A stretch of 64,000 nucleotides of DNA from Melioribacteraceae bacterium (lineage in GTDB: Bacteria > Bacteroidota > Ignavibacteria > Ignavibacteriales > Melioribacteraceae): positions 25,336-89,335 of the forward strand of contig JAOADJ010000001.1 in assembly GCA_026417375.1 (NCBI GenBank), given 5' to 3'. Position 1 is the first letter of the stretch, and the number at the start of each line of letters is the position of its first letter. Made by a program: the position numbers and the translations under genes. The notes under the pieces are model-generated. The model was not told where the DNA came from. It saw only the letters and a list, made by a program, of their open reading frames with translations, and ran no database searches. Shown here piece after piece: positions 45,668 to 45,967 of this stretch.

Positions 45668-45692
45668 ACTATACCTTTAATTAAAAGTGGGG

Positions 45693-45724
45693 CAAAATTA
45701 AAGAAATTATGATTAAATACCAAA
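45693..45724 (-). promoter_or_regulatory. Bacteroidota-type promoter of the rpmH operon
   Basis: On the minus strand TTTG (45724-45721), 20 nt, TAATTTTG (45700-45693): a full match to TTTG-N19-21-TAnnTTTG. Start expected near 45686, 19 nt before the rpmH ATG. It makes the rpmH operon independent of the structured segment upstream. Confidence 0.65.
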
Positions 45725-45740
45725 GAAAGTTGAAATTTTG

Positions 45741-45822
45741 AAGTGCTTTAAAAGGGAGAAGGCGATAACTTTTGCAAATAGCCCAGCCGAAGTACTATTT
45801 GCATCAATCACCGCCGCCACTT
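45741..45822 (-). ncRNA. Candidate structured small RNA between sigma-54 activator gene and rpmH
   Basis: A GC-rich island in an AT-rich gap with no ORF. On the minus strand it folds into nested stems: AAGUG/CACUU outermost, GGCGGUGAU with GUUAUCGCC (9 pairs counting three G-U), an internal UGAU/AAAA loop with closing U-A pairs, and GCAAAUAG with CUAUUUGC (8 perfect pairs) capped by a loop containing CUUCGG. The G-U pairs become A-C mismatches on the plus strand, which favours a minus-strand RNA; a T run on the plus side (TTTTTAATTTTT) keeps the other orientation open. It does not match SRP RNA, tmRNA, 6S, tRNA or riboswitches I know. Confidence 0.5.
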
Positions 45823-45857
45823 TTTAATTTTTGTTGATGCTTATGTATTTATATTAA

Positions 45858-45873
45858 TTCAATGCTTGTGCCA
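45858..45873 (-). promoter_or_regulatory. Near-consensus sigma-54 promoter facing the structured RNA
   Basis: On the minus strand TTTTGGCACAAGCATTGAA: TGGCAC, five bases, TTGAA, differing from TGGCAC-N5-TTGCA at one position. GG and TG have the required 12-bp spacing. The start would be near 45847, about 25 nt before the structured element. A Bacteroidota reading (TTTG, 20 nt, TAAATACA) is clearly poorer. A sigma-54 activator gene ends 95 bp upstream. Confidence 0.5.
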
Positions 45874-45967
45874 AAATGAAAACACTTATTTTAGCACATA
45901 TTATTCGAAAATGATTTTAAAAATTGTTTCAATTTGATATGAAATTATATTCTGGGGCAATACTTTT

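What the first reader, a model, noticed from the sequence alone, without database searches (positions are those of the whole stretch)
45668..45967. Possible sigma-54-dependent small RNA beside a sigma-54 activator gene
Seen: a GC-rich, ORF-free segment (45741-45822) that folds into a long interrupted hairpin with a CUUCGG-containing loop; on its upstream side TGGCAC-N5-TTGAA (45858-45873), one base off the sigma-54 consensus; on its downstream side a full TTTG-N20-TAATTTTG promoter for rpmH, so the segment is not simply the rpmH leader; and a GAF-AAA+-Fis activator ending 95 bp upstream on the same strand. Known: Qrr RNAs lie next to luxO, and GlmY is controlled by GlrR, both through sigma-54. 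Inference: a regulator-sRNA pair placed in front of the ribosome/YidC operon. I recognise no Rfam family. Orientation is not fully certain, because a T run follows on the plus side.
Basis: partly seen in the sequence, partly recalled or inferred. Interest (0 to 1): 0.78.

Follow-up and report, generated by a model that had tools for sequence, protein, structure and literature searches.

The report
Sigma-54-driven small RNA, co-regulated with adhesin
The stretch in front of rpmH is very probably a real, previously unlisted small-RNA gene of one family of Ignavibacteria, with a sigma-54 promoter and the same upstream activator box as a giant secreted adhesin gene, so the RNA is probably made together with the adhesin rather than being run by the regulator gene beside it.

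Summary
The minus-strand hairpin recurs in 32 genomes of ten genera of one family (Melioribacteraceae, the family of Stygiobacter), with no convincing match elsewhere among 391 genomes of the class. Its stems show strong compensatory change around an almost invariant UCGGCUGG loop. TGGCAY-N5-TTG lies upstream in 26 of 31 copies (0.03 expected), in 22 of them preceded by a TGANACA box. Rfam has no match. The RNA (about 98 nt, 45847-45750 minus) ends before a separate, conserved rpmH promoter and persists in genomes where it is not beside rpmH.

The pairing with the neighbouring activator is not supported: that gene lies elsewhere in relatives and is not co-distributed. Instead the same box plus sigma-54 promoter precedes a 1,400-2,250-residue T9SS-secreted thioester-domain adhesin gene, which in many relatives lies directly upstream of the RNA. 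In this genome it is on another contig.

Best reading: an unidentified enhancer-binding protein switches on adhesin and RNA together, and the RNA then acts by base pairing through exposed loops. Transcript, targets and regulator are not shown. A new RNA family of a known kind.

The parts
45925..45937 (-). Upstream activator box TCAAATTGAAACA (consensus TCANNNTGANACA), putative enhancer-binding-protein site
   Evidence: Same box before the -24 element in most relatives and before adhesin genes
45858..45873 (-). Sigma-54 promoter TGGCAC-N5-TTGAA (-24/-12)
   Evidence: Only match in the window; TGGCAY-N5-TTG in 26 of 31 copies against 0.025 in shuffles; RpoN encoded
45750..45847 (-). Predicted small RNA, about 98 nt (start inferred from the -12 element, end from the U run after the hairpin)
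   Evidence: Inference from promoter position and hairpin/U run; no transcript data
45761..45815 (-). Core stem-loop SL2, probably also the terminator hairpin
   Evidence: z -3.4; covariance-model match 45754-45822, 83 bits; 11 of 19 pairs with two-sided change
45782..45790 (-). Conserved apical loop UCGGCUGGG, putative contact site
   Evidence: GGCUGG in 31 of 31 copies, UCGGCUGG in 30 of 31
45823..45847 (-). 5' leader; short here, without the CCCUC segments and extra hairpin found in most other genera
   Evidence: Leader comparison
45693..45723 (-). Separate rpmH promoter TTGG...TAATTTTG (Bacteroidota type)
   Evidence: Conserved between hairpin and rpmH in most relatives
45521..45667 (-). 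rpmH, ribosomal protein L34; a neighbour, not part of the unit
   Evidence: Downstream of 28 of 31 copies
45968..47698 (-). GAF/AAA+ sigma-54 activator gene; a neighbour only in this genome, probably not the cognate regulator
   Evidence: Pfam; unlinked in relatives and not co-distributed

Best explanation
45750-45847 (minus) is a stand-alone small-RNA gene transcribed by RNA polymerase with sigma-54 from TGGCAC-N5-TTGAA. It is activated by an enhancer-binding protein, not yet identified and probably not the neighbour, that binds TCANNNTGANACA. The same protein switches on the gene of a giant T9SS-secreted thioester-domain adhesin, so RNA and adhesin are made together. The RNA ends at its own hairpin, before rpmH's promoter. 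It most likely acts post-transcriptionally and without Hfq: the invariant UCGGCUGGG loop, and in most relatives CCCUC-containing 5' segments, pair with target mRNAs. Shown by sequence comparison: a conserved covarying structure, promoter conservation, an independent unit, and an activator box shared with the adhesin. Inferred: transcription itself, the shared regulator, base pairing and targets.
For: Covarying hairpin in 32 genomes of ten genera. Sigma-54 promoter in 26 of 31 copies, 22 with the upstream box; none on the reverse strand or downstream. RpoN present in 12 of 12 genomes. Copies away from rpmH keep promoter and hairpin. The box plus sigma-54 pattern has 39 matches and 0 control matches in 79 genomes; by coordinates 30 lie before an adhesin gene and 3 before the RNA. 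This genome's adhesin has the same box and promoter. Adhesin directly upstream of the RNA in several genera. No Hfq found.
Against: No transcript evidence. The U run starts 7 nt after the stem, so termination is not textbook. G002 has a promoter-less second copy. The CCCUC segments are missing in the window copy and in several genera, so that mode of pairing cannot be universal. Pairing to the adhesin mRNA was good in only 4 related genomes. The adhesin also occurs in 30 genomes where no RNA was detected.
Confidence: 0.62

Rival explanations
1. The adjacent GAF/AAA+ activator is the dedicated regulator of the RNA (a LuxO-Qrr-like pair).
For: Adjacent and on the same strand in the window; it is a sigma-54 activator; it is present in 7 RNA-bearing genomes.
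Against: Unlinked in G005 and G001. 16 RNA-bearing genomes searched for it lack a match at E <= 1e-150, and 9 genomes have it without a detected RNA. A functional substitute below that threshold is not excluded.
Confidence: 0.08
2. The segment is a sigma-54-driven leader of the rpmH-rnpA-yidC operon (an attenuator), not a separate RNA.
For: rpmH lies downstream in 28 of 31 copies.
Against: rpmH has its own conserved promoter after the hairpin. Copies in G005 and G021 lie before other genes with promoter and hairpin intact.
Confidence: 0.08
3. The RNA is a true sigma-54 small RNA but acts by binding a protein or the ribosome rather than by mRNA pairing.
For: One short loop is nearly invariant across genera while both stems change; no single target pairing is conserved; no Hfq found.
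Against: CCCUC segments in 20 of 30 leaders look like anti-Shine-Dalgarno sites; no candidate protein is known.
Confidence: 0.18
4. The hairpin is a mobile repeat, a bare terminator, or part of a small coding region.
For: A reading frame runs through the window copy; G002 has a second, promoter-less copy.
Against: No other copy in this genome and one copy per genome in relatives except G002. Copy lengths of 65-71 nt with single-base indels break any frame. Conservation is coupled to the promoter.
Confidence: 0.04

Closest known systems
Qrr RNAs of Vibrionaceae (LuxO and SypG, sigma-54; PMC10162802)
   Same: Small RNA read from a sigma-54 promoter with an upstream activator box; in Vibrio fischeri also tied to an aggregation regulator
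   Different: No sequence or Rfam match; no Hfq found; activator gene not linked; co-regulated with a giant adhesin gene
GlmY (QseF/GlrR, sigma-54; PMC6075780)
   Same: Sigma-54 promoter and upstream activating sequences in front of a small RNA
   Different: No Rfam match; different structure; no evidence of a link to glmS or RapZ
C-rich-loop RNAs sX13 (PMC3771888) and LhrC (PMC4132741)
   Same: About 100-130 nt with two to three hairpins and exposed C-rich motifs in most relatives; LhrC represses an adhesin, LapB; sX13 acts without Hfq
   Different: Different sequence and promoters; the window copy lacks the C-rich segments; pairing with any target not demonstrated

Membership tests
Sigma-54-dependent small RNA (functional class) | Conserved -24/-12 promoter in front of a conserved non-coding RNA | tested here: met
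   26 of 31 copies against 0.025 expected; covariation
Sigma-54-dependent small RNA (functional class) | Organism encodes RpoN | tested here: met
   PF04552 in 12 of 12 genomes including this one
Sigma-54-dependent small RNA (functional class) | Transcription lost without rpoN | not testable with these tools
   Needs an experiment
Qrr RNA | Match to a known Rfam family | tested here: not met
   No hit in the window at gathering thresholds; none credible at relaxed thresholds on the locus
Qrr RNA | Hfq-dependent pairing | tested here: not met
   No Hfq homologue in 12 genomes
GlmY/GlmZ | Match to a known Rfam family | tested here: not met
C-rich-loop small RNA (sX13/LhrC-like) | C-rich motifs in exposed segments | tested here: inconclusive
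   CCCUC in 20 of 30 leaders, absent in the window copy
C-rich-loop small RNA (sX13/LhrC-like) | Pairing with a Shine-Dalgarno region shown | tested here: inconclusive
   Leader pairing with adhesin 5' regions no better than shuffles
rpmH leader RNA | Lies within the rpmH transcript and stays linked to rpmH | tested here: not met
   Separate rpmH promoter; unlinked copies in G005 and G021

The most novel reading that the evidence does not exclude
A two-part sigma-54 regulon in Melioribacteraceae: one enhancer-binding protein fires a giant thioester-domain surface adhesin together with an Hfq-independent small RNA, and the RNA retunes translation of the adhesin or of opposing functions through a fixed UCGGCUGGG loop, making a self-contained attachment switch.
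Probability: 0.4. Interest if true: 0.7.

Novelty: new member of a known kind. Interest (0 to 1): 0.6.

Why it matters
The paper searches made here found no report of a small RNA in this group, and no Hfq gene was found in the twelve genomes tested. This RNA comes with a defined promoter, a predicted start site, an activator box and a co-regulated gene, so its regulation can be tested directly; Stygiobacter electus, of the same genus, carries a copy. It would also give an entry to how these bacteria decide to deploy a giant surface adhesin.

Tried and rejected
Rfam at gathering and relaxed thresholds: nothing credible (a 27-bit RsmY match in L105 is far below its 57-bit cut-off and lies outside the RNA). 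Cognate regulator = neighbour: rejected on position and distribution. rpmH leader: rejected. Coding region: rejected because of frame-breaking indels. Adhesin mRNA as the universal target: whole-length duplexes were uninformative and the script timed out; a segment-wise test was good only in four genomes whose adhesins share CAGCC in their first codons, so they are not independent. The own-against-other comparison is void (a missing 5' region gave a dummy energy). MAFFT and RNAalifold on the 5' leaders gave no consensus helix because the arms of the extra hairpin misalign, although single sequences fold it. The cognate enhancer-binding protein was not searched for systematically. Paper searches found no description of this RNA.

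Full report
WHAT IS THERE. The minus-strand segment 45741-45822 folds far better than shuffled sequence (z -3.5), whereas the plus strand does not (z -0.7). The promoter-like TGGCACAAGCATTGAA at 45858-45873 minus is the only such site in the window. rpmH (45521-45667 minus) has its own promoter after the hairpin. Rfam has no family for the segment.

CONSERVATION. BLASTN found the hairpin in all five same-genus genomes and in other genera of the family. A covariance model from ten copies found it in 30 of 79 family genomes, eight genera, one copy each except G002. Two more copies that this model missed, in G008 and G025, lie directly after the adhesin gene described below. That gives 33 copies in 32 genomes and ten genera. 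No genome outside the family has a convincing match (164 genomes of the order including the family; 391 sampled from the class, with one chance-level hit in G054). On the 31-copy alignment 95.4% of pair cells are paired; 11 of 19 pairs show change on both sides, in 61 cells against 14.9 in shuffles; slid controls fall to 41-53% paired. That alignment was fitted to the structure, which favours it, but the earlier ten-sequence MAFFT alignment already showed nine such pairs. The apical GGCUGG is in every copy and UCGGCUGG in 30 of 31.

PROMOTER. In the 180 bases upstream of the hairpin, TGGCAY-N5-TTG occurs in 26 of 31 copies; dinucleotide shuffles give 0.025 on average, and the reverse strand and the downstream side give none. 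With a TGANACA box in the 75 bases before it: 22 of 31, none in shuffles. The relatives are not independent samples, so these figures show conservation rather than 26 separate events. Most of the remaining copies have a one-base variant (AGGCAY in three copies of genus g13) or a weak or absent site (G011, G002b). RpoN is encoded in all 12 genomes tested, including this one. The start inferred from the -12 element is about 45847, which makes the RNA about 98 nt here. In most other genera it is longer, with a conserved AAAUAAGCACCCUCU-like start and an extra hairpin (GAAAGC...GCUUUC) whose loop often holds CCCUC. The window copy and G005 lack that part.

INDEPENDENCE FROM rpmH. rpmH follows in 28 of 31 copies, but its own promoter lies between. 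In G005 the RNA gene sits before panB, and in G021 before a NagZ-like gene, with promoter and hairpin intact. G005 appears to be Stygiobacter electus 09-Me: its contig C45 has the length of JARGDL010000005.1 and the same match. The RNA gene is therefore a transcription unit of its own.

THE NEIGHBOURING ACTIVATOR. It has GAF and sigma-54-interaction domains. In G005 it is on a different contig from the RNA, and in G001 78 kb away. Among the RNA-bearing genomes that one search covered, seven have it at E <= 1e-150 and sixteen do not; nine genomes have it without a detected RNA (lists, restricted by hand to genomes covered). The adjacency in the window looks lineage-specific, and the protein is unlikely to be the general regulator.

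THE SHARED ACTIVATOR BOX. A search for TGAAACA-N35-65-TGGCAY-N5-TTG across the family gave, besides the RNA, a recurrent second promoter. It precedes a gene for a very large secreted protein with thioester (TED), SdrD-B, choice-of-anchor-A/ice-binding-like adhesive and T9SS sorting domains. In L153, L154, L159, L195 and L199 the order is adhesin, RNA, rnpA/yidC genes; in L153 and L199 a methyltransferase-like gene lies before the adhesin. The refined pattern TCATNNTGANACA-N42-72-TGGCAY-N5-TTG gives 39 matches in 79 genomes and none for the reversed control; by my reading of coordinates against, 30 lie just before an adhesin, three before the RNA and six elsewhere. This genome's adhesin on G000:C2 (L191:3034-7740, running to the contig end) has TCATTTTGATACA and TGGCATTTTGATTG upstream. 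Adhesin matches occur in 30 of 32 RNA-bearing genomes and 30 of the 47 others (Fisher p 0.003; not corrected for phylogeny, and the profile was built mostly from RNA-bearing genomes). The adhesin is thus broader than the recognisable RNA. In G020 a promoter with the same kind of box stands before rnpA with no recognisable hairpin.

HOW IT PROBABLY WORKS. Shown by comparison: conserved structure, promoter, activator box, separate unit. Inferred: one enhancer-binding protein fires both genes and the RNA then acts in trans. No Hfq was found in 12 genomes, so a chaperone-independent RNA with strong stems and exposed loops is expected, as in sX13 (PMC3771888) or LhrC, which represses the adhesin LapB through UCCC motifs and does not need Hfq for it (PMC4132741). 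CCCUC in 20 of 30 leaders would fit anti-Shine-Dalgarno pairing, but it is absent from the window copy and several genera, so the universal element should be the UCGGCUGGG loop. A test against adhesin 5' regions was good only in G074, G060, G102 and G027 (0-2 of 60 shuffles as good), where CAGCC lies in the first codons; those adhesins have related starts, so this is a lead and not a result.

COMPARISON AND CONFIDENCE. It works like Qrr1 of Vibrio fischeri, which needs sigma-54 and either LuxO or SypG (PMC10162802), and like GlmY, read from a sigma-54 promoter under QseF (PMC6075780, abstract), but it is a member of neither. It is a new RNA family of a known functional kind. My confidence is about 0.93 that this is a conserved sigma-54-dependent small-RNA gene, 0.85 that it shares its activator with the adhesin, and about 0.6 for the full explanation including mRNA pairing. 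Paper searches for small RNAs in this group returned nothing relevant, within an open-access library only.

Noticed in passing
L090 (G002:C240, about 3657-3726 minus): A second copy of the hairpin in G002, between der and a small gene, without the sigma-54 promoter; it resembles the window copy more than G002's other copy and could be contamination or a relocated relic.
   Followed up: partly
L245, about 5624-5710 plus (G020): A sigma-54 promoter with the same kind of activator box at the place of the RNA gene before rnpA, but without a recognisable hairpin; a strongly diverged RNA or a different transcript.
   Followed up: no
L129, L132, L133, L142, L145 and others: A separate sigma-54 system: palindromic TGAAAC-N5-GTTTCA-like boxes plus a sigma-54 promoter before a cytochrome-like (SCEGCHTNY) gene, directly after a ~445-residue protein (EGVFTVDK..., PAS-like start) that may be its activator.
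   Followed up: no
window 47898-50307: A P-II-like (glnK) gene, a small secreted protein gene and an amtB-like gene diverge from the activator gene, so the window activator may instead serve nitrogen control.
   Followed up: no
L192:163-5379 minus (G000:C6, outside the window): A second, more distant thioester-type adhesin gene in this genome, 86 bp after a methyltransferase-like gene, without the box and promoter.
   Followed up: partly
12 family genomes including this one: No Hfq homologue found, so trans-acting RNAs here would work without it or with another chaperone.
   Followed up: partly
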